Shown here one piece after another: positions 1,194-55,763 of a stretch of DNA of 59,410 bases. A model generated the notes under the pieces. The model saw only the letters and a program-made list of their open reading frames with translations. It did no database searches and had not been told where the DNA came from. Numbering within the stretch: position 1 is the stretch's first letter; every line of letters starts with the position of its first letter. Position numbers and translations under genes: made by a program. Source of the stretch: an uncultured Bacilli bacterium (GTDB lineage Bacteria > Bacillota_I > Bacilli_A > RF39 > UBA660); assembly GCA_944358705.1 (NCBI GenBank), contig CALVRR010000010.1, forward strand, positions 1 through 59,410. Direction: 5' to 3'.

Positions 1194-1298
1194 ATGAGTG
1201 TGAGATGGAATGAGAAATTTATTATAAAATCTATTTTTAATATAATAACAATTTCTTTTGTCATGCTTTCATGCTCAATACTTTGCCTAATAAAATAA
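1194..1298 (+). CDS. Possible 34-residue single-pass membrane peptide
   Basis: A short ORF starts with ATG at 1194, eight bases after AGAGGT, and encodes a peptide with a positively charged start and one hydrophobic helix (IFNIITISFVMLSCSILCLI). A good promoter lies just upstream and a strong terminator starts at its stop codon, so it forms its own small transcription unit. No family is recognised. It could be a small membrane regulator, a type I-toxin-like peptide or a chance ORF; the surrounding signals favour a real gene. Confidence 0.4.
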   Translation: MSVRWNEKFIIKSIFNIITISFVMLSCSILCLIK

Positions 1299-1335
1299 AA
1301 AGACGCACAGCAACAATGCTGTGGCGTCTTTTTTG
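1299..1335 (+). terminator. Rho-independent terminator
   Basis: AAGACGCACAGCA and TGCTGTGGCGTCTT form a 13-bp stem with one bulge, followed by a run of T. It closes the transcription unit that ends at 1298. Confidence 0.85.
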
Positions 1336-1357
1336 TTTACAAAATAAGGAGGTGTAT

Positions 1358-2812
1358 ATGAATACTTTAAAATTAAATGATTTGCTTTTAAAAGTTTCTG
1401 AATACAATAATGATGAAAAAGATTTAATTAAAAAAGCCTACGCTTTTGCTGAAGAAATACATAGGGGACAAAAGCGTCAAAGTGGAGAAGATTATATCCA
1501 ACATCCTTTAAATGTTGCCTACATTCTAGCAGATATGCATGCGGATACAGATACAATATGTGCAGGTTTACTGCATGATACGATAGAAGATGCAAGAGAA
1601 GATCCTAATGTTGTAAAACAACATATTATAGATACTTTTAACAGTGATATAGGTTTTTTAGCCGATGGTGTAACAAAAATTAGAAGAATGAATTTCCTAC
1701 CAAAACAAGATCAGAATATGGCTAATAAACAAAAACTACTGGTAAGTATGGCAAAAGATATTAGAGTTATCATCATAAAATTAGCAGATAGACTTCATAA
1801 CATGAGAACATTACAATATAAATCAGAATTTAAACAAAAAGAAAATGCTGCTGAGACTTTAAGTATGTTTGTACCATTTGCCTATTATATCGGTGCCTAT
1901 ATAATGAAAAATGAACTAGAAGATTTATCTTTCCGTTATCTGAAACCTGAAGAATATAAAAGAATGGAAGAATTAAGACAAAAAATAGATAATGATAGTA
2001 ATCATTGTCTAATAGAAATGCTATCAAAAATAAACGAAGTATTAAGTGACAACAATATTCCTCATGAAATAAAAGTCAGAACCAAAAATATCTATGGAAT
2101 ATATAAAAGATTACAACAAGGATATAGATTAGCCGATATTCATGATTTATTATCACTTAAGATAATGGTAAATGACATTCTGAATTGTTATCAGACATTA
2201 GGATTAGTTCATTTAATATATCATCCAATCCCTAGAAGATTTAAAGATTATATATGTAATCCAAAAACGAATTTGTATAGTTCTCTTCACACGACAGTCT
2301 TCGGAGCAGATGAGAGATTAGTACAAACTCAGATTAGAACTTTTGAAATGGATAAAATAGCTTCCTACGGACTAACGACATACTGGGATATTCATAAAGG
2401 TAATGCAAGAGAAGTAATGCAAGAAGAACTAAAAAACAAATTCCAATTTTATGAATCACTAGATGAAATCTTACATATGTCTAAAGACACCAAAATATTT
2501 ATTAATCAAGTAAAAAGTGAATTGTTAAATGATAAAATATATGTATATACACCAAGTGGAGAAAAACTAGAATTACCAAAAAATGCAACACCAATTGATG
2601 TGGCTTATAGAATTCACTCAGAGATAGGAAATACCATGGTTTCAGCAACGGTAAATGAAAATATAGTAGATATTGGACAAACGCTTAAAACAGACGATAT
2701 TGTTAGAATAATTACAGATAGAAATGCCGAAGGGCCAAAAGAGGACTGGTTAAACCATGTAACAACAGCAAAAGCTAAAAGAAAAATAAAAGAAGCCATT
2801 AGAAAAGCATGA
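1358..2812 (+). CDS. rel: RelA/SpoT family (p)ppGpp synthetase/hydrolase, short form
   Basis: This enzyme makes and degrades the stringent-response alarmone (p)ppGpp in the cytoplasm. The ATG at 1358 is chosen because AAGGAGG lies seven bases upstream; the open frame back to 1271 runs through the preceding terminator. Residues ~25-180 are the HD hydrolase, with HP at 49-50 and the HDTIED motif at 73-78 intact. The synthetase follows (IYGIYKRLQ, IHDLLSLKIMV, YSSLHTTVFG, QIRTFEMDKIASYG), then a TGS domain (IYVYTPSGEKLELPK, from about residue 393). It stops at 484 residues, about 250 shorter than full Rel proteins, and lacks the zinc-finger and ACT regulatory domains, so ribosome sensing is probably altered or supplied by another RSH. 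Confidence 0.9.
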   Translation: MNTLKLNDLLLKVSEYNNDEKDLIKKAYAFAEEIHRGQKRQSGEDYIQHPLNVAYILADMHADTDTICAGLLHDTIEDAREDPNVVKQHIIDTFNSDIGFLADGVTKIRRMNFLPKQDQNMANKQKLLVSMAKDIRVIIIKLADRLHNMRTLQYKSEFKQKENAAETLSMFVPFAYYIGAYIMKNELEDLSFRYLKPEEYKRMEELRQKIDNDSNHCLIEMLSKINEVLSDNNIPHEIKVRTKNIYGIYKRLQQGYRLADIHDLLSLKIMVNDILNCYQTLGLVHLIYHPIPRRFKDYICNPKTNLYSSLHTTVFGADERLVQTQIRTFEMDKIASYGLTTYWDIHKGNAREVMQEELKNKFQFYESLDEILHMSKDTKIFINQVKSELLNDKIYVYTPSGEKLELPKNATPIDVAYRIHSEIGNTMVSATVNENIVDIGQTLKTDDIVRIITDRNAEGPKEDWLNHVTTAKAKRKIKEAIRKA

Positions 2813-7826: not shown

Positions 7827-7909
7827 AATTTGTAAATTTTCCTACTAGTGTATTTAATTTAGTGGCAAAATCGCCTATCTTTACATATTTTAATGTAGAG
7901 GTGAAAAAG

Positions 7910-8183
7910 ATGAATGAAAGGAAAATAACTGGTGTTGTAGTAGATTCTGGTCATGGAGGAAGTGACCCAGGAGCTATTAGTGGAAATTTAAGAGAAAAAG
8001 ATTTTAATTTAGAGGCAGCGAATTATATGACAAGAAGATTACAAGAGTTAGGTATTCCTGTAGTATCAGTAAAAACTACGGATGAAGATATATCAAGAAC
8101 AGAACGATTAAGAAGGGCAAATCAAGCTTTTGATGGAGATCCTAATGCAATCCTGATTTCCAATCACATAAACTCCGGAGGAG
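7910..8183 (+). pseudogene. N-terminal half of a LysM N-acetylmuramoyl-L-alanine amidase, interrupted by an integrative element
   Basis: This is the beginning of an Amidase_3 peptidoglycan hydrolase. ATG 7910 is preferred because AGAGGTG precedes it; the open frame from GTG 7862 has no ribosome site. The fragment holds all three zinc ligands: His in DSGHGGSDPGA, Glu in the EKDFNLEAANYM segment and His in ILISNHINSGG. The frame then runs into the element and stops at 8212. The remaining catalytic Glu ([10 protein letters not shown]) and the LysM repeats lie 12.45 kb away at 20632-21570. Joining 8176 to 20632 gives a continuous 401-residue protein, so this gene may be interrupted rather than dead. 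Confidence 0.9.
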
Positions 8184-8202
8184 CGGAGTTCAGTTACCAT
8201 TA
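8177..8202 (+). repeat. Left attachment site (attL) of the serine-recombinase element
   Basis: GGAGGAG core followed by the arm GAGTTCAGTTACCATTA (8186-8202), which is the reverse complement of the right arm with one mismatch. Confidence 0.8.
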
Positions 8203-8357
8203 CATAATTTAATTGGGTATTTAGACGGTTATATTTAAGCTAAATAAATTTATTGATAAATTATACTAAAATTGAATTTTTGGCTTGAATAAAGGCATAA
8301 AATAAAGAATTTTTAATATATTTCACTTCAAATGTTAAAAAATGGCTATTTTTGCTG

Positions 8358-8416
8358 TATAATGTAGTTAAGAATAGCAGTATCATTCTTTTTTAAGATG
8401 GATACTGCTTATTTTT
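8358..8416 (+). promoter_or_regulatory. -10 element and intrinsic attenuator hairpin before the cyclase operon
   Basis: TATAAT at 8358-8363 (weak -35 upstream) is followed by AGCAGTATC (8376-8384) pairing with GATACTGCT (8401-8409) and then TTATTTTTT. The hairpin would stop transcripts started at this promoter before the cyclase start at 8437, unless read-through is controlled. The rest of 8213-8436 shows nothing recognisable. Confidence 0.5.
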
Positions 8417-8436
8417 TGAAGTGAGGTGTAATTTCA

Positions 8437-9807
8437 ATGGGATTTATGCGTGATGATTTTGATAAAATGGATGAACAAATAAAAAAAATAACGTTACAAA
8501 AAGTGGAGGAAATTAATATTAATAATAATATTCCTACAGTTGCAGATCTAAAGGATAATAATCAGGTGCATGTGATTGATGCTACAATATTGTTTATTGA
8601 TATTAGAAAATCAACAGAACTTACTGATTTAAGCTTGCCAAAAACAATGGTTAAAATTTACCGTTCTTTTATTAGAATGGCAGTAGATTGTGTTAGAAAA
8701 AATAACGGTGTTACTAGGCAATTTTTAGGCGATAGAATAATGGGAGTATTTTATGATGAGATAGACGAAGCTGGAAATGTTCTTTGTAGTGCAGTTGATA
8801 ATGCTATAAATTGTGCTAGAGCATTACAAACGTGCATTGTATTTTCGCTAAATAAAAATCTAAAGAAAAACGTATGTGATAAAATGATTTCTTGTGGTAT
8901 AGGAATAGATACTGGAAAGGTTTTAGTTTCAAAAGTTGGCATGTATGGTTTGGAGTCTAATGCTAGCAAAGAAAATGAAACTGATTGTGTATGGGTGTCT
9001 AAAGTAACTAATTATGCCAGCAAATATTCTGATATAAGTAATGGAAATGAAATATTTGTATCGGAAAAAGTGTATGAAAAATTAACTGATAGCTTTAAAC
9101 AAAATGTTGAATGGAATAAAGTAATAAGAATCAAAAATGGTCAAAAATATATAGGATATTGTGTGTCAGATTTTTATTTAGATTATTATAAAGATCTTGG
9201 AGAACAATTTAAGCTAAGTTCAAATAATGTAGCTACTGAGGAATTAGTATTAAGTACTATTGTTGATAAATTAAACCAAACGTATGATAAATTATTGCTT
9301 AAAGAGAAAAAATTAATGGAACGGGAGAATGAAATCAATTCAGACGCCCAAAAAAATTTAGAAGAAAAAAGCAGAAATTTAGACTTGCTCAATAATTTGT
9401 ATGACTATTGTGATAGTATTATACGCAGTTTATTTTTACAAGGAGAGTTAATAAAAGAATTAGGATTTAGAAAAATCATGGAACTATTAGGTTTATTTTA
9501 TAAAGTTGGTGAACTTAAAGGGGAAGATATATATGAAGTTGAAAATTCAATACTCGCTCAATTAATTGATATCTATAATATTCTTGGCTCATATGTAGAT
9601 AGTTTTAATTATATGATAAGAATGATCGAAAATAGCAGTTGGGTTTTGATAAGAGAAGAAACTGTCATATGGGCTAGAAATAATAATAAATCATATAAAA
9701 TAAGGCATGAAATAGAAAAACGAATAAATGAAAATAAAGGTACAGCCAAAGAAAAAGAATGGGGAAGATATTTAGATGAAGTTTTAAAAATATTGGAGGA
9801 AAAGTAG
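8437..9807 (+). CDS. pycC: Class III nucleotide cyclase with C-terminal helical domain, Pycsar PycC-like
   Basis: The protein is predicted to make the cyclic nucleotide signal of a Pycsar-type anti-phage system. Residues ~45-240 are a class III cyclase homology domain: metal-binding Asp55 in ILFIDIRKSTELTD and Asp99 in FLGDRIMGVF, at the 44-residue spacing usual for the two metal aspartates. Residues ~275-320 look like a coiled coil (LLLKEKKLMERENEINSD), followed by a helical C-terminal domain of ~140 residues that I do not recognise. The strong ribosome site GTGAGGTG precedes the ATG. It is coupled to the effector gene: stop at 9807, next ATG at 9809. Whether the product is cCMP, cUMP or cAMP cannot be read from the sequence. 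Confidence 0.78.
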   Translation: MGFMRDDFDKMDEQIKKITLQKVEEININNNIPTVADLKDNNQVHVIDATILFIDIRKSTELTDLSLPKTMVKIYRSFIRMAVDCVRKNNGVTRQFLGDRIMGVFYDEIDEAGNVLCSAVDNAINCARALQTCIVFSLNKNLKKNVCDKMISCGIGIDTGKVLVSKVGMYGLESNASKENETDCVWVSKVTNYASKYSDISNGNEIFVSEKVYEKLTDSFKQNVEWNKVIRIKNGQKYIGYCVSDFYLDYYKDLGEQFKLSSNNVATEELVLSTIVDKLNQTYDKLLLKEKKLMERENEINSDAQKNLEEKSRNLDLLNNLYDYCDSIIRSLFLQGELIKELGFRKIMELLGLFYKVGELKGEDIYEVENSILAQLIDIYNILGSYVDSFNYMIRMIENSSWVLIREETVIWARNNNKSYKIRHEIEKRINENKGTAKEKEWGRYLDEVLKILEEK

Positions 9808-9808
9808 T

Positions 9809-10366
9809 ATGAAAATAAAAAATAATAATGCATATAGCATAGATGATGCATACAAGAGTTTAGATAATATTAATTCATGGATTATTAATTCAGATACAAA
9901 AGCATCTATTGTTTTAGGATTATTAGGTGTATTATTTACAATAATATTTAGCAATTCGGATTTTATAAATATATTGAATAAGTTAATTAATGAAATTTTT
10001 AATGATATTATGTTTTGTGACATATTTTATTTAATCATAATGTTTTTTTCATTAGTTTTATTTATAAATGGAATTTATAATTTAATATTAGTTTTAATTC
10101 CAAAATTAAAATTAAATATTAACAAAAGAAAGTCTATATTGTACTTTGGGGACATTTGTAGTTTTGAATCTGTTAACGAATTTAAATATAAAGTTTATCA
10201 TACAAAAAAGGGAGAACTGTTAGATGACGTTTTAAATCAAGTTTACATTAATTCTAGCATATGTACAAAAAAGTTTAATAATTATAAAGTTGGGCTTAGT
10301 CGTATCTTCCTTGGTGTTTTAATATTTTTTGTTTTTTATATGTTGGGGATATTAGTTTATTTGTAA
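9809..10366 (+). CDS. pycTM: PycTM-like membrane effector of the Pycsar operon
   Basis: In Pycsar, the PycTM effector senses cUMP or cCMP and damages the membrane, aborting phage growth. This 185-residue protein has the arrangement of that family: an N-terminal helix (IDDAYKSLDNINSWI), a conserved-looking DTKASIVLGLLGVLFTIIF first membrane segment (about 31-49), a second long hydrophobic segment (about 68-92), a YFGDICSF cytosolic segment (about 111-118), and a last TM helix at 165-184. Its ribosome site GGAGGA lies inside the end of the upstream cyclase gene, and a second cyclase follows 12 bases after its stop, so it sits between two cyclases. Confidence 0.75.
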   Translation: MKIKNNNAYSIDDAYKSLDNINSWIINSDTKASIVLGLLGVLFTIIFSNSDFINILNKLINEIFNDIMFCDIFYLIIMFFSLVLFINGIYNLILVLIPKLKLNINKRKSILYFGDICSFESVNEFKYKVYHTKKGELLDDVLNQVYINSSICTKKFNNYKVGLSRIFLGVLIFFVFYMLGILVYL

Positions 10367-18044: not shown

Positions 18045-19703
18045 ATGAATAATACTTACTTATATGGATTAGATTTTAATGTTGGAATCTATATAAGATT
18101 ATCTCAAGAAGATAAGGACAAAAAATATGAATCTGATAGTGAAAGTGTAATAAATCAAAAAGAATTATTAAGAAATTATGTTAAAAATAATAATTTTAAT
18201 TTAGTTAAAGAATATGTTGATGATGGATTTTCTGGAACTGATTTTGAAAGACCTGGATTTAAAAGTTTGTTAGAAGATATTAATAATAAAAAAATTAATT
18301 GTGTAATAGTAAAAGATTTATCAAGACTTGGTCGTGATCATGTTATGACTGGTTACTATATTGAAACATTTTTTCCAGAGAATAACATAAGATTTATTTC
18401 TATATTAGAATCTTTTGATAGTTTTAAAAATCAAGCTAGTAATGATTCATCAACATTTATAATTGCTTGTAATGATTATTATAGTAAACAAAATTCTATT
18501 AAAATTAGAAATGTTTTAAATGAAAAAAGAAAAAGTGGTAAATTTGTAGGAAGTCTTCCATGCTATGGATATATGAGAGATCCAAAAGATAAAGGACACT
18601 TAATCCCTAATCCAGAAACAGCTCCAATTGTTAAAAAGATATTTAAATGGCGAGCAGATGGTATTGGACCTACCGAAATAGCAAATAGACTTAATAAAGC
18701 ACATATAGTTACTCCTAGCGGTTATAAAAAGACTAATTATTCATCTAGATTAATTGATAGAGATAATTGGAATATTTCCACAGTAAAAAAGATTTTAATT
18801 AATAGAATTTACACAGGAGATTTAGTTCAGCACACTCAGACTAAAGTAAGTTATAAATCCAAAAAGAAAATAACATTGGATGAAAAATTATGGATAGTGG
18901 TAGAAAATACTCATGAACCATTAGTTGATAAAGACACTTTTGATTATGTTAATAATTTAAGAAAAAGAAACACAAGAAATTATGAAATAAAAACTGATAG
19001 AGAAAAAAGATTATTAGAAGGTAAATTATTTTGTAAGGAATGTGGAAATAAACTTACTGTACTTTATAGAAAAAAACAAGATTACTGGTCAGTTAATTGT
19101 AATAGATATTCAAGAGATCCAGTTAGAGGTAGATGTTATTCACACTTTTATCCATATAATTATTTAGAAGAACAAGTATTAGAACAAATAAATAAATCTA
19201 TTTCTAAGTTAATGAAAGAATTAGATCTAAAACAATTAAATGATGAGGTTGTTAAAAGTGTTTACAAGGAAACTAATAACATAGATAAAGTTATTAAAAG
19301 TTTGGAAATAGAAAAAGAAAAAATAACTAAGAGAATTACAACTTTATATAATGATAGATGTGATGGGGTAATATCTACTGAAACTTATAAAGAACTGGCT
19401 AAAGAGTCTGAAATTAAATTAAAAGAAATTAACAATTTAATAGACAATGAAAATATAAAAAAGTACAAAATAAAAAATAAAGCAAATGTTTTACCAGACT
19501 ACACTAAAAAGATAAAGAAACTATTGGATTTAAATAAACCTAAAAAAGAATTAATAGATACATTAATAGATAAAATAGTTATTGATAAAGATAGGAATAT
19601 TACTATATATTTTAAATACAATATTGTACCAGTAGTTTCTTTCAAATATGAAAAAACAAATTTAGTTCGAAACCCTTATGGTAGAAAAGGTAAAAAATAT
19701 TAA
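18045..19703 (+). CDS. Large serine recombinase (TnpX/integrase-like)
   Basis: This 552-residue site-specific recombinase should integrate and excise the element. Ser20 in VGIYIRLSQED is the nucleophile. The resolvase domain continues with YVDDGFSGTDFERPGF, VKDLSRLGRDH and a conserved Arg region. The recombinase domain (GSLPCYGYMRDPKDKG...IANRLNKA) follows, then a zinc ribbon (CKECGNKL with a later CN and C) and a C-terminal coiled coil (about 380-460). The ribosome site GGATTGGAGGA is strong. Short att cores and symmetrical attP arms, as found at both ends here, are what such enzymes use. No recombination directionality factor is identified with certainty. Confidence 0.95.
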   Translation: MNNTYLYGLDFNVGIYIRLSQEDKDKKYESDSESVINQKELLRNYVKNNNFNLVKEYVDDGFSGTDFERPGFKSLLEDINNKKINCVIVKDLSRLGRDHVMTGYYIETFFPENNIRFISILESFDSFKNQASNDSSTFIIACNDYYSKQNSIKIRNVLNEKRKSGKFVGSLPCYGYMRDPKDKGHLIPNPETAPIVKKIFKWRADGIGPTEIANRLNKAHIVTPSGYKKTNYSSRLIDRDNWNISTVKKILINRIYTGDLVQHTQTKVSYKSKKKITLDEKLWIVVENTHEPLVDKDTFDYVNNLRKRNTRNYEIKTDREKRLLEGKLFCKECGNKLTVLYRKKQDYWSVNCNRYSRDPVRGRCYSHFYPYNYLEEQVLEQINKSISKLMKELDLKQLNDEVVKSVYKETNNIDKVIKSLEIEKEKITKRITTLYNDRCDGVISTETYKELAKESEIKLKEINNLIDNENIKKYKIKNKANVLPDYTKKIKKLLDLNKPKKELIDTLIDKIVIDKDRNITIYFKYNIVPVVSFKYEKTNLVRNPYGRKGKKY

Positions 19704-33794: not shown

Positions 33795-35648
33795 ATGACA
33801 AAAAAAGAGAAAAAAGAACTAGTAAAAATTATTATAACTATAATAATTCTATTATTAATTAGAGTATTACCAGTAATAGACATAGTAAAGTTAATATTAT
33901 ATATAGTTGCATACTTAAGTGTGGGATATCAAGTAGTATTAAAAGCAATAAAAAACATTTTCTCTGGACAAGTATTTGATGAAAATTTTTTAATGAGTAT
34001 TGCAACCATTGGTGCCTTTGGAACTGGTGAATATTTAGAAGCAGTTCTTGTGATGTTACTATATCAAATTGGAGAACTATTCCAATCCTATGCCGTAGGA
34101 AAATCTAGAAAATCCATTGCGGAATTAATGGATATTCGACCAGACTATGCTAATATTGATCAAGATGGACAAATAATCAAGGTGAATCCAGAAAAAATAA
34201 AAGTAGGAGATATCATAATTGTAAAACCAGGGGAAAAAATCCCTTTGGACGGAAAAATAGAAAAAGGAACATCTTTACTGGATACATCCGCTTTAACTGG
34301 AGAATCGTTACCGAAAAAAGTAGCCCCTGAAGATATGGTGCTAAGCGGTTGTATAAATAAAAGTGGAATTCTAACAATCCGAGTTACCAAAGAATTTGGT
34401 GAATCTACAGCTTCTAAAATCTTGGATTTGGTTGAAAATGCAAGTAGTAAAAAGGCAAAAGCCGAAAACTTTATTACAAAGTTTGCAAAATACTATACTC
34501 CTACAGTAGTGATATTAGCATTGTTAGTAGCTTTTATCCCTCCAATATTCATAGAAAACCTAACTTTATTAGAATGTGTGAAAAGAGCAATGACTTTCTT
34601 AGTTATATCTTGCCCATGTGCCCTTGTAATCTCTGTTCCTCTTGGATTCTTTGGTGGAATTGGAGGAGCTTCTCGACAAGGAATTTTAATAAAGGGAAGT
34701 AATTACCTAGAAATTTTAGCAAATACCAATACCATCGTATTTGATAAAACAGGAACATTAACGGAAGGAAAATTTCAAGTAACAAAAATAAAGGCAAAAG
34801 AAAAAGAAAGAATATTAGAAATAGCTGCTCTTGCCGAAACTTTTTCTTCCCATCCTATCGCAATCGCAATAAGAGAAAAAGTAGGAAAAGATTTTGATCA
34901 AAATAGAATAAAGAATGGAAAAGAAATTGCCGGAAAAGGAATCGCAGCCAAGGTAGATGGAAAGCAAATTTTAGTTGGAAATAACAAATTAATGGAAGAG
35001 TATAAAATATCATATCCAAGAGCAACAGAAATTGGAACGATAGTTTATGTAGCAGAAGAAAAAGAATGTTTAGGCTATATTGTTATTGCAGATAAAGTAA
35101 AAGAGAATGCAAGTAAAACACTAAAGGAATTAAAAGCAAGAAATCATATCCAAAACACCATTATGTTAACAGGAGATAAAAATGAAATTGCTAATAGTAT
35201 TGCTAATGAACTTGGAATAGACAAAGTATACTCGGAGTTATTACCCCAAGATAAAGTAGATAAGTTAGAAAGAATTCTAAAGGAACAAAAAGATGAGGAA
35301 AAAGTAGCGTTTGTCGGAGATGGAATGAATGACGCACCAGTATTAGCAAGAGCGGATATCGGAATTGCCATGGGAGCTTTAGGAAGTGATGCCGCAATTG
35401 AAGCAGCAGATGTAGTAATTATGGATGATGACATATCAAAAATAGGAGATGCTATTTATTTATCACAAAAAACAATCCAAATTGTAAAACAAAATATTTA
35501 TTTTGCGATTGGTATTAAAGTATTCTTCTTAATACTTGGAGCCCTAGGAATAGCAAGCATGATGGAAGCGGTATTTGCGGATGTAGGAGTATCGATGATT
35601 GCCATATTAAATTCTATGAGAGCTTTAAATATAAAAAGACCAAAATAG
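33795..35648 (+). CDS. P1B-type Zn2+/Cd2+-exporting ATPase
   Basis: The 617-residue pump removes divalent soft metals from the cell. It shows TGES (TGESLPKKV), the TM6 metal-binding CPC in ISCPCALVIS near residue 272, DKTGTLTEGK near 316, the HP motif SSHPIAIAI and GDGMNDAPVLARADIG, with the C-terminal Lys/Asp helix region ADVGVSMIAILNSMR found in ZntA/CadA. It starts directly with TM helices and has no HMA domain of its own; this is encoded separately upstream. A terminator begins within its stop codon. Confidence 0.93.
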   Translation: MTKKEKKELVKIIITIIILLLIRVLPVIDIVKLILYIVAYLSVGYQVVLKAIKNIFSGQVFDENFLMSIATIGAFGTGEYLEAVLVMLLYQIGELFQSYAVGKSRKSIAELMDIRPDYANIDQDGQIIKVNPEKIKVGDIIIVKPGEKIPLDGKIEKGTSLLDTSALTGESLPKKVAPEDMVLSGCINKSGILTIRVTKEFGESTASKILDLVENASSKKAKAENFITKFAKYYTPTVVILALLVAFIPPIFIENLTLLECVKRAMTFLVISCPCALVISVPLGFFGGIGGASRQGILIKGSNYLEILANTNTIVFDKTGTLTEGKFQVTKIKAKEKERILEIAALAETFSSHPIAIAIREKVGKDFDQNRIKNGKEIAGKGIAAKVDGKQILVGNNKLMEEYKISYPRATEIGTIVYVAEEKECLGYIVIADKVKENASKTLKELKARNHIQNTIMLTGDKNEIANSIANELGIDKVYSELLPQDKVDKLERILKEQKDEEKVAFVGDGMNDAPVLARADIGIAMGALGSDAAIEAADVVIMDDDISKIGDAIYLSQKTIQIVKQNIYFAIGIKVFFLILGALGIASMMEAVFADVGVSMIAILNSMRALNIKRPK

Positions 35649-35658
35649 GTCTTTTTCT
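35634..35658 (+). terminator. Terminator of the metal-export operon
   Basis: AAAAAGACC pairs with GGTCTTTTT around a six-base loop that includes the stop codon. Confidence 0.75.
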
Positions 35659-35707
35659 TGTGAAAAAAAAGAAAAATATATATAATAAAAAACTAAGGAG
35701 TGGTACA

Positions 35708-37039
35708 ATGAGAAGAAATGTAATTTCTGTGATTGATGGTGCCGCCGGTAGTTGTGGAAAAGCGAAAGTAATCGGCGAAATAGCAACGGATCCAGAGATA
35801 AAAATCACAGCATCAATTACCAATAGTATGCCAAACGCTGGACACACTTTTGTAGATAGCAAAGGAAATACAACAGTTTTTCATAACATACCAACAGCCA
35901 TAGTAAATAAAGATACAGAGTTATTTATAGGACCAGGATCCATAATCGATATGGATATGTTAAAAAAAGAGTATCAAGGTGCAGAAAAATATTTAAACGG
36001 AAGAAAAATATATGTCCATGAATTAGTACCACTAGTGGAAGAAAGACATAAAAAAGAAGAAAGAAAAACATTAAAAAGTGGTTCAACTTTTAAAGGAGGA
36101 GGCGTAGCCTCAGCAGAAAAATGTCAAAGAAAAAGGAACTTAGAATTTTTTAAAGGTTACAAAAATATGATTGTATGTCGAAACGATGAATTCTATGATA
36201 GATTGTACGAACAATTAGATAGAACCGACGGGTATGTTCTATTAGAAGGGGCACAAGGGTGTGATTTGGATTTGAACCATAGTGGAAATTATCCCAATAC
36301 TACCAGTAGAGATGTTAGTACAATGAGATTATTATCCGACAGTGCAATCCCACCAGAAAGACATTTGGAAACGATTATGGTTATTCGACCATTTCCAATT
36401 CGAATTAGTAATATTACGGAAACAGGAGAATATATAAATAGTGGAAATTACGGAACTAGTAGAGAACTTACTTGGAGTGAAATAAATCTAGGAGCAAAAT
36501 ATGAGTGCTATCCAACCATGGAAAATATAGAAGAATATCTAGGGGATGTAACATTAACGGAAGAAGAAAAAGAATATTTTTTAAATAGTTTATCAAATGA
36601 TGCTAAATTACAATTATTTGGTCCAAGGAAAATACCAAATAACTTAACCAAACTAGAGCAATTAGAACTAGAAAGATTATATTATAAAGAACAAGGAATA
36701 AGAAAATATAATAGTAAAATCGCAGGAGAAGTCATTGAAGATTTATCAGAATTAACAACAGTAACGAAAAAAGAAAGACGAATCTTCGAGTTAGACATAA
36801 AAAAGTTAAAGAATAATGTTCGATTTAACAAGCCTTATTGTCTATACCTAAATTTTTTTCAACACTTATCTAGTAGATATCAAGGAGTAACTGCCCAAAG
36901 ACAAGATATAAAGTTTAATAGATATATAGAAGAATATCTAAATTGGTTAGAAACAGAAACAAATACTCCCATTGCCACATTAGGAACAGGACCTAGAAAT
37001 AATCAAAAAATTAAAAGACAAGATATGATAAAAAGATAA
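35708..37039 (+). CDS. Adenylosuccinate synthetase-family protein, PurZ-like
   Basis: ATG 35708 has AAGGAG at ideal spacing; 443 residues. PurA joins IMP and Asp; phage PurZ joins dGMP and Asp for the 2-aminoadenine (Z) genome. The nucleotide loop reads DGAAGSCGKAKV, so the catalytic Asp of PurA (GDEGKGK) is replaced by Ser15, the change that marks PurZ. The His of PNAGHTFVD is kept. LLEGAQGCDLDLNHSG, YPNTTSRDVSTMRLLSDSAIP, IRPFPIRISN, RELTWSEI and TTVTKKERRIFELD follow the PurZ/archaeal PurA-like pattern. No phage genes surround it, so it may be a cellular PurZ relative of unknown substrate or an altered PurA paralogue. Confidence 0.75.
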   Translation: MRRNVISVIDGAAGSCGKAKVIGEIATDPEIKITASITNSMPNAGHTFVDSKGNTTVFHNIPTAIVNKDTELFIGPGSIIDMDMLKKEYQGAEKYLNGRKIYVHELVPLVEERHKKEERKTLKSGSTFKGGGVASAEKCQRKRNLEFFKGYKNMIVCRNDEFYDRLYEQLDRTDGYVLLEGAQGCDLDLNHSGNYPNTTSRDVSTMRLLSDSAIPPERHLETIMVIRPFPIRISNITETGEYINSGNYGTSRELTWSEINLGAKYECYPTMENIEEYLGDVTLTEEEKEYFLNSLSNDAKLQLFGPRKIPNNLTKLEQLELERLYYKEQGIRKYNSKIAGEVIEDLSELTTVTKKERRIFELDIKKLKNNVRFNKPYCLYLNFFQHLSSRYQGVTAQRQDIKFNRYIEEYLNWLETETNTPIATLGTGPRNNQKIKRQDMIKR

Positions 37040-37618
37040 TTAATGTTTTCGTAAAAAAATGTTAGAAAGAAATCTTGGATAAATACGAAAGAAATTGATA
37101 AGAATACTTTCAATCCATAAATCAGTAAGAATATCTTCACGACTTGAAAAAAATTCATAACGAAGTAAAAATCTTTGCCTAAAACCAAAGCATTTAAGTA
37201 AAGGAAGATCTTTAGGACTTAACGTCCTATTTTTTTCTTTGACAGAAAAACAATAAAACATTTTACATGTAAAATTACTCGTTATACATCCTCTAGGACT
37301 AGAGTATTTGCATAATCGACAACAACCATTCTTATATTTTCCTTTTCTTCTTTGCACAACACACTGTTCCTGTTGAAAATCACATAGATTTTTTTTACTG
37401 TAAAAAGAGTCTACCTGTTTACATAAAGTATCGTAAATATATACAATTCTTTGTTTTTTGTTTTTTATATTTAAAGCCTTGACAATAGGATCAATAGGAA
37501 GACAACTTCCTTGATTAGAAAAAGAAATAAAGCGACAGAGAAAGGAACGATAGAAAAACAATCGACGTTCTAGTTTTTTTAAATCCCTCATAGATTGTAT
37601 GGAAATTACTATTTGCAT
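37040..37618 (-). CDS. Cys-rich protein of unknown function
   Basis: ATG 37618 is preferred because AGGTGAG lies five bases before it. The ~192-residue basic protein has a central cluster of cysteines (EQCVVQ, NGCCRLCKYSSPRGC, TCKMFYC) that could bind zinc or an Fe-S cluster, flanked by helical, Arg/Phe-rich ends. I do not recognise the family. It is convergent with the PurZ-like gene (adjacent stop codons) and divergent from the helicase gene. Confidence 0.55.
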   Translation of the reverse strand: MQIVISIQSMRDLKKLERRLFFYRSFLCRFISFSNQGSCLPIDPIVKALNIKNKKQRIVYIYDTLCKQVDSFYSKKNLCDFQQEQCVVQRRKGKYKNGCCRLCKYSSPRGCITSNFTCKMFYCFSVKEKNRTLSPKDLPLLKCFGFRQRFLLRYEFFSSREDILTDLWIESILINFFRIYPRFLSNIFLRKH

Positions 37619-37729
37619 ATTACTCACCTAAATTAATTATAAAAAAAGAAAATCTCTCTGTAAATAAGTGAAAGATAGAAAAAATATAGGGACTTTCGCC
37701 AAAATAAGAATTTGCACATCCAAACAATA

Positions 37730-39307
37730 ATGATTATGATAAGAAATATGCAAATTGGAAAATATATATTAGATAAACAACAAGAAGAGATTGTAAGAAA
37801 TGAAGACAACTATCTTTTAGTAACGGCAGGAGCGGGAAGCGGAAAAACATTAACTATCTTAGGAAAAATCTCTTACTTGGTAAAAGAAAAAAAGATATCG
37901 GAAAATGAAATCTTATGTATCTCATTTACAAAATCCTCAGCCGAATCTTTAAAGCAAAAAATAAAACAAGAACTAATATTAGAAGTACCAACATATACTT
38001 TTCATAAATTATCTTTAGAAATAATAAAAGAAGAATATAAAAATTATGAAATAGCAAGCGATTCTTTATTAGAAAATATAGTAAATGAATTTTTTGAAAT
38101 AGACATTTATCATAATCCATATTTATTAATGATAATATGTAAATATTTTAAAGAAAAAACAAAGAAGAAAGAACTTGCTTATCAGAAAATCATGGAAACG
38201 AAAAAAAACGAGATTTTTAAATTAAAACAACTATCGATAACTTTCATTAAATTAATGAAATGTAATAATTATAATTTAAAAGATTTTCTTCTATTTTTAT
38301 CAAAAATAAAAAAATCCTTAAATTATGTTAGATATAAAAAAGAAAAGACTATTTTAACATTAATCTTAAACATCTATCTAAAGTATGAAAATTATTTAAA
38401 AGAAAACAAAGAAATAGATTTTGACGATATGTTATTAACAGCAATAAAAAAAGTAAAAGAAGTAGGAATGAAAAAACAGTTGAAATACATAATTATTGAT
38501 GAATATCAAGATACTTCATACATTCGTTTTCAATTAATAAAAGAAATAATAAAAAAAACAAATGCCAAATTAATGGTTGTAGGAGATGATTTTCAATCCA
38601 TTTATAAATTTACTGGTTGTGATATATCGCTATTTTTAAATTTTAAAAATTATTTTGAAGATGCTAAAATTATGAAAATAGAAAAGACATATAGAAATAG
38701 TAATGAACTAATACAAATTGCCGGGGCATTTATAATGAAAAATAAAAAGCAAATAAAAAAGAAACTATATTCAGAAAAGCACTTAACACGTCCCATAAAA
38801 ATTTTAAAATATAAGAATATAAGAAAAATATTTTTAGAAATCATAAAAGAGCTTGCGAAAAAGAAAGAACAAAAAATCTTAATATTAGGAAGAAATAATA
38901 AAGACATTAATTTATTATTAAATGATGATATTCAAAAGACAAATCAAGATAAAATTAAAATAAAAGAATATGAATATTTGGATATTACTTACATGACTGT
39001 GCATAAATCCAAAGGATTAGAATGTGATAATGTAATTTTAATAAATCTAGACAATAAAATAACAGGGTTTCCTAGTCAATTACCAGAGGAAAAACTAACA
39101 AGATTAGTCACAAGAACGAAGGATACTTATCCATATAGTGAAGAAAGAAGATTGTTTTATGTCGCATTAACTAGAACAAAAAATTATGTGTATTTGTTAG
39201 TTCCTAAAAAAAGCCCCTCTATATTTATAGAAGAGCTAGAAAATATAATGAATTATTTAGAAAAGGAAAATAATTTTTTTAAATCCTTAGGGGTATTCAA
39301 TAAATAG
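37730..39307 (+). CDS. Compact UvrD/PcrA-type SF1 DNA helicase
   Basis: The protein (about 525 residues; the start may be ATG 37730, 37736 or 37748, since no clear ribosome site decides) has all SF1A motifs: Walker A TAGAGSGKTLT near residue 31, LCISFTKSSAESLK, IIDEYQDTS, GDDFQSIYKFTGCD, KTYRNS, MTVHKSKGLECDNVI and RRLFYVALTRTK. It is about 200 residues shorter than PcrA, so the 1B/2B subdomains are reduced. Its last 55 bases overlap the convergent HAD gene. Confidence 0.85.
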   Translation: MIMIRNMQIGKYILDKQQEEIVRNEDNYLLVTAGAGSGKTLTILGKISYLVKEKKISENEILCISFTKSSAESLKQKIKQELILEVPTYTFHKLSLEIIKEEYKNYEIASDSLLENIVNEFFEIDIYHNPYLLMIICKYFKEKTKKKELAYQKIMETKKNEIFKLKQLSITFIKLMKCNNYNLKDFLLFLSKIKKSLNYVRYKKEKTILTLILNIYLKYENYLKENKEIDFDDMLLTAIKKVKEVGMKKQLKYIIIDEYQDTSYIRFQLIKEIIKKTNAKLMVVGDDFQSIYKFTGCDISLFLNFKNYFEDAKIMKIEKTYRNSNELIQIAGAFIMKNKKQIKKKLYSEKHLTRPIKILKYKNIRKIFLEIIKELAKKKEQKILILGRNNKDINLLLNDDIQKTNQDKIKIKEYEYLDITYMTVHKSKGLECDNVILINLDNKITGFPSQLPEEKLTRLVTRTKDTYPYSEERRLFYVALTRTKNYVYLLVPKKSPSIFIEELENIMNYLEKENNFFKSLGVFNK

Positions 39308-40812: not shown

Positions 40813-43131
40813 ATGGAAAAGAAAAAAAGACTAACCGAAGCGGAAAAAGTGGCTCTACAAGAATATTTAAAACTAGGACACCCAGAACTAATAAAATATC
40901 TACCATGTTTTTATGCAAACGAAGAAACCAGTTTCGCAGGCAATACAGCGGTTAGATTATTAAGAAATCTATCTTATCAACTAGAAGAAGCGGATGAAAA
41001 TATACAAGAACAATTATATTTAATTTTAGATAAAATAATGGATGGCCTTGCTACAATAAGATATAAAAAAGATAAAACAACTTTTCGCTTTACCAGTATA
41101 GATCAAATTAACCAAGAATTATTAAAAATGTTTTCAATAGCAGATAAAAAGGATGAATTTGAAAACTTTGCCACTCTTTTAAATTATAAAATAAACAGTC
41201 CAAAATTTTATGATGAGTGTTTGCAAAAAACAAAGGAACTGTTTGAATACTATAGAAAAGAGAAAAACCTTCCTAGAGAACTTACTACCAATTTTTATAA
41301 TCAGATACTAAATAAACAAAGAGATGTTTACATAAAACAAGAAAAAAGTAAGATGATAGATTCTCTAAAAAGAAAAATACCATACACCAAAAAGAAGGAA
41401 GAAAGCCGAATAAGGGGAGCGAAATTGAAAAAAATAGATCAGATTCTAGAAAAGGAAGAATTTGAAAAACTAGGAACGAGTAAAGAAGAGTTAATGAGTT
41501 TAGTAAAAGATTATAAGGAATATTTAAACTCTTTAAAGAAGTTAAAAAAAGAACATATAGTAATTAACCAAACAGAACTAGATAAGATAAATTTATTATT
41601 TATTCAAGGAAAACTAACAGAAGAAACTTTAAGTAGTATTTTGCCTAATGTTTCCAGGGAGATACTTACAATTGTACTAGATAAATATACCCAGATAAAA
41701 TCAAGGTTTTTAGATAACGTATCGGTAACGAAAAAAGACTTAAGGTCTTTGGATTTAGGGTATAACTATAATAATTATCAGATTGGAAATCAAAATAAAA
41801 TAGATGAAAATATAATAAAAATAATAGATACTATTACGGAAGAAGAAGCACAAGATATTTTATACGAAGGACCAGTACCACAAGTACTAAAATATATGTT
41901 ATCTCTGGTTGGATATTTTGAGGATTTTGATATTCCAGAAATGATAGGGATATTAAGAAATTATCCAAGAGTATTAAAACAAATGAAAAAAGAAGGATTA
42001 ATCCAAACTAGTCCAATAGGTGAACCTCGGTCGGCCATTATGAATCGTGCTTTAAAAGAAGCAATTCCTCAATTTGCAAATTTCTTAACAATAATGAAAG
42101 CTTACGATAGCATAGACGATATTGGTGCAAGTATTTTAGGAAAAGATTTATTAGAAAAATTAGAAGAATCCGATAGAACAACTAGTAAAAATCCTGCAGA
42201 GTATCTTAATGTATATCAATGGATGCTAAAACGTGAATACACAACGGTTCCACCAATCGAAGGAGAATTTCTAGACTGCTATTACGAAACAGCAAGGGAT
42301 TCTGATGTAGACAGACTATTAATTGGAAAAATTTATAATATGTGTTGCATAGGCCCAGGAGGAGGGGGAGAAGAAGCCTTTCTCTCTTCCTTAACTGGTC
42401 ATAATGCAGATGTCATAATGATAAAGAAAAAAGAAACAGACCAAGTAGTAGCCAGAAGCTTATGTTTTAGAGCTGGCAATTATGTGGTGCTGGCTCCAAT
42501 TTATAGTGAAAGAGGATTCGCTATAGATTTTTATGATCCAGGATTCCTATCTGTAGTAGCAACGAAAATGTTAAAAAAATCACAAGAAAATAACGATACC
42601 TTAAAATATGTATTTATAAGCCCAGAAGGATGGTTAGTCGATGACTATTATGAAATAGTAGAAGATACTTACTTAGTTGATCCATTTCCTCATGCGGATT
42701 TAAAAGATTTGGCTTATTTAATAGGAAATACCACAGGTTCGAAAGAAGTAGAAATTGATTCTACAGTAGAAATGCCAGTCACATATCCTACAAAAAGAGA
42801 AAAAATAAAGGATAAATCACAAATAACAACCGAAGAAATAACCAGAATAAAAGCACTAGATATCTATTTAACAGAAGCAGGGGAAGAAAAAGAAACAAAA
42901 GCCAGAAACTTTGAAGAAGTAAATATAGAAAAATATGATGAACTATATAAAGGACAAGACTGGTATATAGCAATGACTAATGGACAAATAATAGAAGAAA
43001 TTAGACTACCAATACATCAATTAGCCCAGGAACATGAAATACATCAATTAAAAAATGAGTTGGTAAAAATACAAATGTTAACAGAAGATTTAAATATAGA
43101 CAGGGGAAGTAGTAAGGGAGGAACCAAATGA
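40813..43131 (+). CDS. Large protein of unknown function, first gene of a four-gene operon
   Basis: This 772-residue, mostly helical, charged protein has no TM segment. Residues ~500-640 contain CCIGPGGGGEEAFL and HNADVIMIKKKETDQVVARS, a strand-rich patch followed by YVFISPEGWLVDDYYE, which could be a small ligand-binding or acyltransferase-like domain. I do not recognise a family. Its stop overlaps the next start (ATGA), so at least this pair is translationally coupled. A GAGGG site precedes the ATG. Confidence 0.6.
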   Translation: MEKKKRLTEAEKVALQEYLKLGHPELIKYLPCFYANEETSFAGNTAVRLLRNLSYQLEEADENIQEQLYLILDKIMDGLATIRYKKDKTTFRFTSIDQINQELLKMFSIADKKDEFENFATLLNYKINSPKFYDECLQKTKELFEYYRKEKNLPRELTTNFYNQILNKQRDVYIKQEKSKMIDSLKRKIPYTKKKEESRIRGAKLKKIDQILEKEEFEKLGTSKEELMSLVKDYKEYLNSLKKLKKEHIVINQTELDKINLLFIQGKLTEETLSSILPNVSREILTIVLDKYTQIKSRFLDNVSVTKKDLRSLDLGYNYNNYQIGNQNKIDENIIKIIDTITEEEAQDILYEGPVPQVLKYMLSLVGYFEDFDIPEMIGILRNYPRVLKQMKKEGLIQTSPIGEPRSAIMNRALKEAIPQFANFLTIMKAYDSIDDIGASILGKDLLEKLEESDRTTSKNPAEYLNVYQWMLKREYTTVPPIEGEFLDCYYETARDSDVDRLLIGKIYNMCCIGPGGGGEEAFLSSLTGHNADVIMIKKKETDQVVARSLCFRAGNYVVLAPIYSERGFAIDFYDPGFLSVVATKMLKKSQENNDTLKYVFISPEGWLVDDYYEIVEDTYLVDPFPHADLKDLAYLIGNTTGSKEVEIDSTVEMPVTYPTKREKIKDKSQITTEEITRIKALDIYLTEAGEEKETKARNFEEVNIEKYDELYKGQDWYIAMTNGQIIEEIRLPIHQLAQEHEIHQLKNELVKIQMLTEDLNIDRGSSKGGTK

Positions 43132-53365: not shown

Positions 53366-53396
53366 AAAAAAAGATAACACTCAAGTTATCTTTTTT
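53366..53396. terminator. Bidirectional terminator between hicB and the CBASS operon
   Basis: AAAAAAAGATAAC pairs with GTTATCTTTTTT around a six-base loop. Confidence 0.85.
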
Positions 53397-54210
53397 AGTT
53401 ATTCTTAATTTTAATAGATGGCTTATCATTAAAAATAAATTTATTTTTACTATTTGCATTATATATATTTAATATAAAGTCGTCTCTCCCTGTATTAAAA
53501 ACGTTGTAATATAATTCTTTATTTGTTTTGGAATTGGTATTAAAAAACAAATTATATTCCTTATGTTCCTTTTTTAATAAATTAATAATATTTGCAATTT
53601 CTTTAATCAAATTTTCAGAGTAAAACCGTCTGTTATTTTTATTATCTTTACGTTTGACGATAATAGTTCTGTTACACATTGTACTTTTAGGTAGTTTGTC
53701 TTTTGTTATTTCATAAGTATCACCTATAACTAAATTAATCGTATCACTTTCTTTATTATCATCTTTATATACATAATCACAATCCTCGCTCGGTATTTTA
53801 TCCTCAATAATATTAAAACAATTATGGTTTTTTAATATTTTAAATTGAAGAGGGATTGGTTTTAATTTTAGGTGAATTTCTTTTATTCCTAAAAATACGG
53901 ACGAAAACCATAAAATAAAATAGGGGATAGAGCCATATAACGTATCAGGTATTAAGTCTTGTTTTATTTTTCTATTGAAACAATAGTACATTGCCCATAA
54001 GCATAAAATAATGATAGCAGTAATTATTCTTCTTGGGTGTTCAGGAGAAATGTTTTCAAAGTTGATTTGTATTAAAAAAATTTCCAACTCTTTTACAGTA
54101 ACAAAAGTGTATGCTCTAATTGAAATAGTGATAATTAAAAAAATTGGTAATATAATTCTAAAAAATATATACATAATTTTCTTAAAATTATTCATTATGT
54201 ATTCCACCAC
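53395..54210 (-). CDS. Three-TM membrane protein, presumed CBASS effector
   Basis: This 271-residue protein has three N-terminal hydrophobic helices (about 12-30, 60-80, 92-110) and a ~150-residue soluble domain (SEDCDYVYKDDNKESDTINLVIGDTYE..., with NRTIIVKRKDNKNNR). It overlaps the E2-like gene by 23 bases, so it is the third gene of the CBASS operon, where the cell-killing effector normally sits. It does not obviously match Cap15, Cap14 (SAVED) or phospholipase effectors. By analogy the soluble part would bind the nucleotide signal and the TM part would disrupt the membrane. The start could also be the Met at residue 6. Confidence 0.6.
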   Translation of the reverse strand: MVEYIMNNFKKIMYIFFRIILPIFLIITISIRAYTFVTVKELEIFLIQINFENISPEHPRRIITAIIILCLWAMYYCFNRKIKQDLIPDTLYGSIPYFILWFSSVFLGIKEIHLKLKPIPLQFKILKNHNCFNIIEDKIPSEDCDYVYKDDNKESDTINLVIGDTYEITKDKLPKSTMCNRTIIVKRKDNKNNRRFYSENLIKEIANIINLLKKEHKEYNLFFNTNSKTNKELYYNVFNTGRDDFILNIYNANSKNKFIFNDKPSIKIKNN

Positions 54211-54625
54211 CTAACCAATGGCCGGTTATTCTCCAGGATTCATAATAGAAAAGCCACTCTATAGCCCAAGGAATAAAATACTCAGAAATATACAAATGTG
54301 GTTCCCATTCTCTATAGCGAGGGTAGAACAAGCACAATTGTACTATCTGGTTATCATCCGCTATGTAATTCGCCTTATAAGTATGTGGAATTTTCTCATC
54401 TTTATAATGTATGATTCCTTGATTATTAACATATACTTTAGGAACAGAACCGTTATATTCAATCTTTATAACATAAGTTTTAGAATTATAAGAAGTTTTA
54501 ACTTTTTGAATCCATACTAGCACATTATGAAAAATACCAGAGCCTGGCAGACATTCAAAACATTTTTTTAAATCATTGAATTGCTCTGCCAAGTTCTTTT
54601 TTTTTCTTAGATACTTTAATTCCAT
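54188..54625 (-). CDS. E2-like ubiquitin-conjugating-type protein of short type II CBASS
   Basis: The 145-residue protein shows the pattern of CBASS E2 proteins: PHTYKANYIADDNQIVQLCLFYP with the candidate catalytic Cys in QLCLFYP, then ISEYFIPWAIEWLFYYESW and the C-terminal GHWLGGGIH. Such E2 proteins, without an E1, load the CD-NTase C-terminus onto cellular targets and prime its synthesis. The start lies 53 bases inside the CD-NTase gene. No E1/JAB gene is present, defining the short type II layout. Confidence 0.8.
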   Translation of the reverse strand: MELKYLRKKKNLAEQFNDLKKCFECLPGSGIFHNVLVWIQKVKTSYNSKTYVIKIEYNGSVPKVYVNNQGIIHYKDEKIPHTYKANYIADDNQIVQLCLFYPRYREWEPHLYISEYFIPWAIEWLFYYESWRITGHWLGGGIHNE

Positions 54626-55763
54626 AAAAAGTGTGGTTTTTTACTTTCATGTCAGTCGTATGATTAGATAATGTTGCTAGTGAATCATGATTTATACATT
54701 TAGTCTTTCCATCTTTATATCGATTGGTACTATTAAAATAAACATTTGTAATGGTACTATCACCAAAAATAGTTTTCAAGTAATTGGCCTGTTCGATACG
54801 TCCTTCTGTTTTTAAAAAGTTATTATCTATAAGCTCTTTTTTAGCCGACTCCACCCATTTGAAAAATGCATCTTTTCTCTCTGGGTACTCTTTCCATTTA
54901 TCGGCAAAGTTTTCTTGTGGATTAACAGGGTTAGAAATTACAAAATTCCCTTCAGAATCAACATCTATGTATTTTTTGTAATCACATACAAACTTGCGTA
55001 GCAATTCATAAATATTTTCTTCACCAGTATACATTTTAGCCACTAACGTTGTAATGATTATAGAAATTGGTTTTTCTTTTTTTCTTTTATCAGACGCATC
55101 TTTATATTTTATATCTCGATGACGTTTTAGTAATTGTACGGCTTTTTGTAACGGTGTTCTTACCTTATATTCTTTTAAACTCTCCACAGAATTTTTATAT
55201 TGCTCTTTATATTCTGCTAGCAAGTTATCGTGAACTTTTCTTTGCTTATTAAGAAACCATTCTGCGTAACCTTTAGGATCGGAAAGTCTAAACTCATAAA
55301 TATTAGTTTTTAAGTTCTTGTTAGTAATTCGTATTCTTGTGGTATGTATTTCATAAGGAGCCGCAGGTAAAACATCGAGATGAAAATTATTACTTTTATA
55401 GTTTAATGTCCAGCATCTCTTCCCTTCTTTATCTAACAATCGGGAGTATCGTTTGCTCTTCTTTAAAACATCTCCAACTATATTTTTTAAAGCAGATGCC
55501 TCTTCGAAAGAGGAGTCTATTTGACAAACTGCATCTAAATCATAATCATCTTTATCTGACACTGGTTTTATTGTGGTGCCAATGCTCATGGAACCTTGTG
55601 GATAAACATCCACTTCAGACTTAATATGATTAGATAAATATTCTCCTAATTCTTCATAACTTCTTTTTGCACTTTCGTATACTGAATCACTAATATTTAA
55701 TTCATCAGCAACATCGTTGTACATACGATTTAATTCTTCTACTATTACTTCTTCTTTCATCAT
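54573..55763 (-). CDS. CD-NTase (cGAS/DncV-like nucleotidyltransferase) of a CBASS system
   Basis: This 396-residue enzyme should make a cyclic oligonucleotide upon phage infection. The nucleotidyltransferase motif reads PQGSMSIGTTIKP followed by DKDDYDLDAVCQI (GS...G(T)...DxD), and the third Asp is in NNFHLDVLPAAPY. KAVQLLKRHRDIKY marks the OAS-like C-terminal helical domain. The C-terminus ends ELGRAIQ, within the overlap with the E2-like gene. The ribosome site AAGGAGG is strong. Product and clade cannot be fixed by eye. Confidence 0.9.
   Translation of the reverse strand: MMKEEVIVEELNRMYNDVADELNISDSVYESAKRSYEELGEYLSNHIKSEVDVYPQGSMSIGTTIKPVSDKDDYDLDAVCQIDSSFEEASALKNIVGDVLKKSKRYSRLLDKEGKRCWTLNYKSNNFHLDVLPAAPYEIHTTRIRITNKNLKTNIYEFRLSDPKGYAEWFLNKQRKVHDNLLAEYKEQYKNSVESLKEYKVRTPLQKAVQLLKRHRDIKYKDASDKRKKEKPISIIITTLVAKMYTGEENIYELLRKFVCDYKKYIDVDSEGNFVISNPVNPQENFADKWKEYPERKDAFFKWVESAKKELIDNNFLKTEGRIEQANYLKTIFGDSTITNVYFNSTNRYKDGKTKCINHDSLATLSNHTTDMKVKNHTFYGIKVSKKKKELGRAIQ

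What the first reader, a model, noticed from the sequence alone, without database searches (positions are those of the whole stretch)
35708..37039. PurZ-like adenylosuccinate-synthetase paralogue with Asp-to-Ser change, outside any phage
Replacement of the PurA catalytic Asp by Ser in the GSCGKAK loop and the YPNTTSRD/PFPIRIS pattern are PurZ features. PurZ enzymes make 2-aminoadenine precursors for Z-DNA phages. No phage genes, PurZ partner (DatZ/MazZ) or special polymerase lies here, so a cellular role or domesticated gene would be new.
Basis: partly seen in the sequence, partly recalled or inferred. Interest (0 to 1): 0.72.

Follow-up and report, generated by a model that had tools for sequence, protein, structure and literature searches.

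The report
Chromosomal PurZ-type enzyme in purine-auxotroph Bacilli
A group of uncultured bacteria that apparently cannot make their own purines carry, in ordinary chromosomes, a cousin of the virus enzyme that starts 2-aminoadenine ('Z') synthesis, but seem to lack the enzyme that would finish it, so the cell probably uses the product for something other than Z-DNA.

Summary
The ORF at 35708-37039 (+) is an intact 443-aa adenylosuccinate-synthetase-fold protein with Ser instead of the PurA catalytic Asp. It is no lone oddity: 57 related loci turned up in uncultured Bacilli MAGs, under purifying selection. In trees the family falls in the PurZ group, outside PurA, with four IMG/VR phages nested in it. 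Its dGMP- and ATP-site residues are PurZ-type. It is the only PF00709 protein found in its genome. No adenylosuccinate lyase (PurB, or any Lyase_1 member) or PurH was detected there, so neither the PurA route (IMP to AMP) nor the known Z route (PurZ, host PurB, dZTP) can be completed as described. DatZ and MazZ homologues are absent from every cellular locus. Instead, 30 of 53 informative loci carry a GppA/Ppx-like phosphohydrolase gene just upstream, and three short relatives a NUDIX gene; in the window's genome the GppA-like partner lies on another contig. Best reading: a chromosomal branch of PurZ that condenses dGMP with aspartate, working with a guanine-nucleotide phosphohydrolase, with succino-2-amino-dAMP or deoxyguanylate drain as the outcome rather than Z-DNA. 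Chemistry is inferred; the role is open. New variant of a known kind.

The parts
35708..37039 (+). PurZ-clade (adenylosuccinate-synthetase-fold) gene, 443 aa
   Evidence: ORF; PF00709/PurZ profiles; AF2 pLDDT 89.5, pTM 0.90; VIA Z 35-37 to archaeal PurA, PurZ and PurZ0 structures
35747..35767 (+). GSCGKAK nucleotide loop, residues 14-20; Ser15 replaces PurA Asp13
   Evidence: alignments A1 and A3; residue mapping
35834..35848 (+). NAGHT motif, residues 43-47 (catalytic His46)
   Evidence: invariant in A1; matches S-2L PurZ N49-T53 (PMC8342488)
36506..36730 (+). approximately residues 267-341: insert present only in the long (about 440-475 aa) Bacilli subfamily, absent from phage PurZ and short relatives; limits approximate
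   Evidence: gap in alignment to PurZ; helices in model
36755..36778 (+). TTVTKKER, residues 350-357: aspartate-binding loop and Arg357, PurZ-type
   Evidence: mapping to S-2L T273-R280
36851..36862 (+). NFFQ, residues 382-385: ATP-type base site (S-2L N305, F306, Q308) instead of the Asp-containing PurA/PurZ0 motif
   Evidence: PMC8342488
35695..35700 (+). AAGGAG Shine-Dalgarno, 7 nt before ATG
   Evidence: sequence
35658..35686 (+). TTGTGA-17-TATAAT promoter-like site directly after the hairpin of the upstream gene (number of such sites not above shuffles)
35633..35659 (+). AAAAAGACC-aaaata-GGTCTTTTT hairpin plus T-rich tail at the end of the upstream P-type ATPase gene; suggests a separate transcription unit here (read by eye, not listed by the terminator scan)
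   Evidence: sequence
33795..35648 (+). upstream neighbour: P-type metal ATPase, syntenic in G006, G007 and G015
37040..37627 (-). downstream neighbour: 195-aa Cys-rich protein of no known family, syntenic in relatives
37712..39307 (+). downstream neighbour: UvrD-type helicase, syntenic in relatives

Best explanation
The gene encodes a catalytically competent PurZ-type ligase of the cell's own: ATP + aspartate + dGMP (perhaps also GMP) -> N6-succino-2-amino-(deoxy)adenylate. It belongs to a chromosomal branch of the PurZ clade that spread through purine-auxotrophic Bacilli by vertical descent plus transfer, often as a two-gene unit with a GppA/Ppx-like phosphohydrolase (in some short relatives a NUDIX hydrolase). 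I think the partner shapes or supplies the guanine-nucleotide substrate, as MazZ does in Z-phages, and that the pair acts on the guanylate pool as an accessory (possibly anti-phage) module. Because no PurB or other Lyase_1 enzyme was found in the host, the succino-nucleotide, or the drain on deoxyguanylate, is the likely end point, not 2-aminoadenine DNA. Shown by computation: clade membership, active-site residues, purifying selection in relatives, partner association, no lyase detected. Inferred: the reaction, the partner's substrate, the biological role.
For: PurZ-side placement: cellular clade 100/98*, PurA rows separate, four GSCGK phages nested inside. Phage-PurZ active-site positions kept: Ser15, N43-T47, S126, T127, R141, Q183, T199, R232, TTVT350-353, R357, N382, F383, Q385; Val241 is Ile233 (residue roles from PMC8342488). 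Confident model with Z 35-37 to PurZ/PurZ0/archaeal PurA. dN/dS 0.09-0.26 in eight close pairs of relatives. Only PF00709 protein found in G000; no purB, no PF00206, no purH. No DatZ/MazZ homologue in any cellular locus although the same queries hit about 30-57 ORFs among the fetched loci. GppA/Ppx-like gene just upstream (mostly 14-24 bp) in 30 of 53 informative loci, with mostly unshared flanks; genome-level association 12 of 21 versus 12 of 222, Fisher 8e-9, and 1.4e-3 without the adjacent pairs. NUDIX directly upstream in L113, L126, L128.
Against: No biochemistry. The partner is not adjacent in the window (it lies at G000:C37:3022-3903, 70% identical) and G006 lacks it at 95% completeness. 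No PADLOC hit, and many loci sit among housekeeping genes, so a defence role has no positional support. A non-homologous lyase cannot be excluded. Ten of 15 relatives with canonical PurA also lack detectable PurB, so lyase absence is not peculiar to PurZ carriers. The score stays below the curated NCBIfam PurZ cut-off (174 vs 300 bits). Fisher tests are not corrected for relatedness of genomes.
Confidence: 0.45

Rival explanations
1. Divergent PurA: the genome's sole adenylosuccinate synthetase, converting IMP to adenylosuccinate in spite of the Ser.
For: Only PF00709 member found in the genome; same fold as archaeal PurA, Z 37; aspartate and phosphate sites kept.
Against: Catalytic Asp replaced by Ser in nearly the whole clade, ATP-type rather than PurA-type base site, PurZ-side tree position, no PurH to make IMP de novo and no PurB to use the product, patchy presence (21 of 243).
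Confidence: 0.12
2. True Z-nucleotide supply: the cell makes dZMP through an unrecognised lyase and puts some 2-aminoadenine into DNA or RNA.
For: PurZ-type active site; phage relatives in the same clade; NUDIX or GppA-like partners could make the guanylate substrate, like MazZ.
Against: No PurB or Lyase_1 superfamily member detected; no DatZ or MazZ.
Confidence: 0.2
3. Anti-phage module (a specific form of the best explanation): PurZ-like activity drains or poisons the deoxyguanylate pool on infection, and the GppA-like/NUDIX partner senses or feeds it, comparable in logic to dGTPase systems such as Clover (PMC12265719).
For: Two-gene unit in shifting locations, patchy distribution, broken copies in L033, L057, L059 and L060.
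Against: No PADLOC family; neighbours often housekeeping genes; stable synteny in four species of the window's genus.
Confidence: 0.25
4. A recently captured phage purZ without cellular function.
For: Phages L134-L136 and L142 lie inside the clade.
Against: Purifying selection, window gene in a chromosomal subclade without phages (100/100*), GC3 equal to neighbours (0.19), synteny in four species.
Confidence: 0.06

Closest known systems
Phage PurZ (phiVC8, S-2L; PDB 6fm1, 6tnh, 7odx)
   Same: Ser for Asp, dGMP pocket, aspartate loop, ATP-type N-F-x-Q/N site, fold
   Different: Chromosomal; GSCGK not GSTGK; Ile for Val at the 2'-OH gate; about 75-residue insert in the long subfamily; no DatZ/MazZ; host lacks detectable PurB
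PurZ0 (Arthrobacter/Gordonia phages; PDB 7vf6)
   Same: Ser for Asp, fold (Z 36.6)
   Different: Branches outside the cellular plus PurZ group here; has the Asp-containing base site (T-M-x-D) as in PurA
Archaeal short PurA (P. horikoshii, 5k7x/2d7u)
   Same: Fold, Z 37, similar core length
   Different: Has catalytic Asp and the PurA-type site; groups with PurA
MazZ + PurZ phage gene pair
   Same: A candidate guanine-nucleotide phosphohydrolase next to a PurZ-type gene
   Different: Partner here is a GppA/Ppx-like (or NUDIX) protein, not MazG-like; no DatZ
GppA/Ppx family (partner; PDB 1t6c, 6pc0)
   Same: Pfam Ppx-GppA; only profile match H. pylori GppA; fold match 1t6c E 1.3e-17
   Different: Distinct, strongly conserved subfamily with INMGGKTTEL where typical members have a DIGGGSTE-like motif

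Membership tests
PurZ (phage Z-DNA enzyme) | Ser in place of PurA Asp13 | tested here: met
   Ser15
PurZ (phage Z-DNA enzyme) | Groups with PurZ rather than PurA | tested here: met
   PurA sampling small (2-3 rows)
PurZ (phage Z-DNA enzyme) | dGMP pocket and ATP-site residues | tested here: met
   against residues in PMC8342488; V241 is Ile
PurZ (phage Z-DNA enzyme) | Curated NCBIfam cut-off NF038379 (300 bits) | tested here: not met
   174.2 bits
PurZ (phage Z-DNA enzyme) | Condenses dGMP with Asp | not testable with these tools
   Needs enzyme assay
Z-genome biosynthesis pathway | DatZ/MazZ companions | tested here: not met
   None in cellular loci
Z-genome biosynthesis pathway | PurB available in the host | tested here: not met
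   MAG 95% complete
PurA | Catalytic Asp13 | tested here: not met
   Ser15
PurA | PurA-type base site (Asp-containing motif) | tested here: not met
   N-F-x-Q instead
PurA | Curated NCBIfam cut-off TIGR00184 (395.55 bits) | tested here: not met
   94.6 bits
Adenylosuccinate synthetase superfamily (PF00709) | Pfam gathering score and fold | tested here: met
   91.6 vs 27 bits; fold
PurZ0 | Branches with PurZ0 | tested here: inconclusive
   Arthrobacter phage row falls outside the cellular plus PurZ group, but it is one long-branch row
Known anti-phage systems (PADLOC 2.0) | Match to a listed family | tested here: not met
   No match for the gene or its GppA-like partner

The most novel reading that the evidence does not exclude
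Purine-auxotrophic bacteria keep a PurZ that stops at N6-succino-2-amino-deoxyadenylate, using it with a GppA-like or NUDIX hydrolase as a nucleotide signal, poison or DNA-modification precursor: a cellular use of PurZ chemistry separate from Z-DNA.
Probability: 0.3. Interest if true: 0.82.

Novelty: new variant of a known kind. Interest (0 to 1): 0.62.

Why it matters
The published survey of the PurZ group (PMC12884076) held 147 phage and four archaeal sequences; a bacterial chromosomal branch is not described there. If the chemistry holds, PurZ reactions have a cellular role, phage Z-metabolism and cellular genomes have exchanged this gene, and a two-gene unit joining a GppA-like phosphohydrolase to a deoxyguanylate ligase becomes a clear target for testing.

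Tried and rejected
Prophage origin of the locus: no phage structural genes among ten flanking proteins. DatZ/MazZ nearby: none. Hidden PurB: two profiles, both negative in G000. MAG contamination as an explanation: gene order conserved with three other genomes of the genus. Known defence system: no PADLOC match; the Cas11a hit of L126 (E 0.008) is chance-level. PurA/PurZ-like mutual exclusion (0 genomes with both) is not significant (p 0.38). Literature searches for chromosomal PurZ, for PurA-type enzymes in phage defence and for purine auxotrophy in this lineage found nothing direct.

Full report
OBSERVATION. The ORF at 35708-37039 (+) is intact, 443 aa, with AAGGAG 7 nt before the ATG. Among NCBIfam models it matches PurZ best (NF038379 3.5e-51, 174 bits, below the curated 300); it also matches phrog_1211 (8e-49) and PF00709 above its gathering score. 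The best solved relatives by sequence are phiVC8 PurZ, S-2L PurZ and Pyrococcus PurA. The AF2 model (pLDDT 89.5, pTM 0.90) aligns with archaeal PurA, PurZ and PurZ0 at Z 35-37. So the fold is certain and the question is which branch it belongs to.

ACTIVE SITE. Using the S-2L PurZ residue roles in PMC8342488, the ligand-contacting positions are of PurZ type: Ser15 (S23), N43-A-G-H-T47, S126, T127, R141, Q183, T199, R232, TTVT350-353, R357, and N382/F383/Q385 of the ATP site. The 2'-OH gate Val241 is Ile233, at least as bulky. The Pyrococcus and G100 PurA rows have Asp at the catalytic position and a different, Asp-containing base site.

FAMILY AND TREE. One scan of genome contigs gave 57 related loci, all in uncultured Bacilli-type MAGs: a long subfamily (about 440-475 aa, about 55% identical, with a roughly 75-residue insert) and shorter ones (about 360-390 aa). 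In a 53-row tree the cellular rows form one clade (100/98*) on the PurZ side. Adding closer IMG/VR phages places four phages with the same GSCGK loop inside the clade (100/98*), next to short cellular copies; the window's subclade holds only chromosomal genes (100/100*). PurA sampling was small. Eight close pairs of relatives show dN/dS 0.09-0.26. GC3 equals that of neighbours. Four genomes of the genus (G000, G006, G007, G015) share the order P-type ATPase / PurZ-like / 194-195-aa gene / UvrD as far as their contigs reach; 6 of 16 genus genomes carry the gene. Disrupted copies exist (L033, L057, L059, L060).

METABOLIC SETTING. The gene is the only PF00709 match in its own genome. In 243 family genomes, 15 have full-length PurA, 21 have the PurZ-like gene and none shows both, though this exclusion is not significant. 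purB passes its cut-off in 5 of 243 genomes and in none of the 21. The whole Lyase_1 superfamily is undetected in G000 and in 24 of 25 PurZ-like genomes examined; G006 has one member that scores poorly as PurB. purH is absent from all 40 genomes tested. Controls rang in 13-14 of 14 well-known genomes. The cells thus look like purine auxotrophs without the step that turns dSMP into dZMP, which in Z-phages is supplied by the host (PMC8342488; that this host enzyme is PurB is from general knowledge of the pathway). A caution: 10 of 15 relatives with normal PurA also lack detectable PurB.

PARTNERS. In 30 of 53 informative loci the gene directly upstream, same strand and mostly 14-24 bp away, encodes a GppA/Ppx-like protein of about 300 aa, 74-92% identical between loci. 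Flanking DNA is shared by few pairs of loci, so the two genes seem to travel together. Profile and fold searches point to GppA/Ppx. The close partner is present in 12 of 21 PurZ-like genomes against 12 of 222 others (p 8e-9; p 1.4e-3 without the adjacent pairs); relatedness of genomes was not corrected for. In the window's genome it is in trans (G000:C37). Three short relatives have a NUDIX gene directly upstream, and L004 has an HD/HD_4/AAA fusion. All these are plausible nucleotide phosphohydrolases; that they act on guanine nucleotides is inference. DatZ, MazZ and other Z-phage companions are absent from all cellular loci, from the four GSCGK phage loci and from the Bacillus phage locus, while the same queries hit 13-57 ORFs among all fetched loci.

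INTERPRETATION. The most likely chemistry is PurZ chemistry on dGMP (inferred, roughly 0.7). The known Z-DNA outcome is unlikely for want of a lyase (roughly 0.75). I favour an accessory guanylate-pool module whose product or drain is the point; an anti-phage role, by analogy with dGTPase systems such as Clover (PMC12265719), is possible but has no direct support (no PADLOC match). By descent it is a branch of the PurZ clade; it is not filed as a member of the phage Z-DNA pathway, because the companions and the host lyase were tested and not found. The published PurZ survey lists phage and four archaeal members only (PMC12884076), so this chromosomal bacterial branch appears to be new, within the limits of the library searched.

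Noticed in passing
window 53395-55763 (-): Compact CBASS operon: oligonucleotide cyclase (9.9e-112), E2-like protein (3.7e-35) and a SAVED/2TM effector (1.9e-38).
   Followed up: partly
window 18045-19703 (+): Large serine recombinase resembling CcrB/XisF, below curated cut-offs; possible end of a mobile element.
   Followed up: no
window 1271-2812 (+): RelA/SpoT protein of only 513 aa, matching positions 1-451 of 687 of the family model: regulatory C-terminus missing or shortened.
   Followed up: no
window 40813-43131 (+): 772-aa ORF with no Pfam, PHROG, NCBIfam or PADLOC match.
   Followed up: no
window 37040-37627 (-): 195-aa Cys-rich protein without known family, syntenic in several genomes of the genus.
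   Followed up: partly
G100, G117, G094, G209, G022, G196, G027, G237, G021, G203: Relatives with full-length canonical PurA but no detectable PurB or Lyase_1 member: PurA without its lyase, unexplained.
   Followed up: partly
L134, L135, L136, L142: IMG/VR phages with GSCGK-type PurZ and no DatZ or MazZ in the fetched flanks, with thyX-like and ssDNA-binding-protein-like genes nearby (by eye).
   Followed up: partly
L113 (G006:C6, 6363 bp): Small contig with NUDIX plus short PurZ and a group II intron-type reverse transcriptase; second PurZ-like copy of that genome.
   Followed up: partly
L004 around 7904-9976: HD + HD_4 (SpoT-like) + AAA kinase-like fusion protein 24 bp upstream of a PurZ-like gene.
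   Followed up: partly
L130 5485-6594 (-): Clade member with GDCGK and NADHS in place of GSCGK and NAGHT and an altered aspartate loop: reverted or degenerate.
   Followed up: no
L111 and L112: The GppA-like partner without an adjacent purZ sits in a conserved neighbourhood with a HerA/TrwB-like ATPase, radical-SAM-like and NlpC/P60-like genes.
   Followed up: partly
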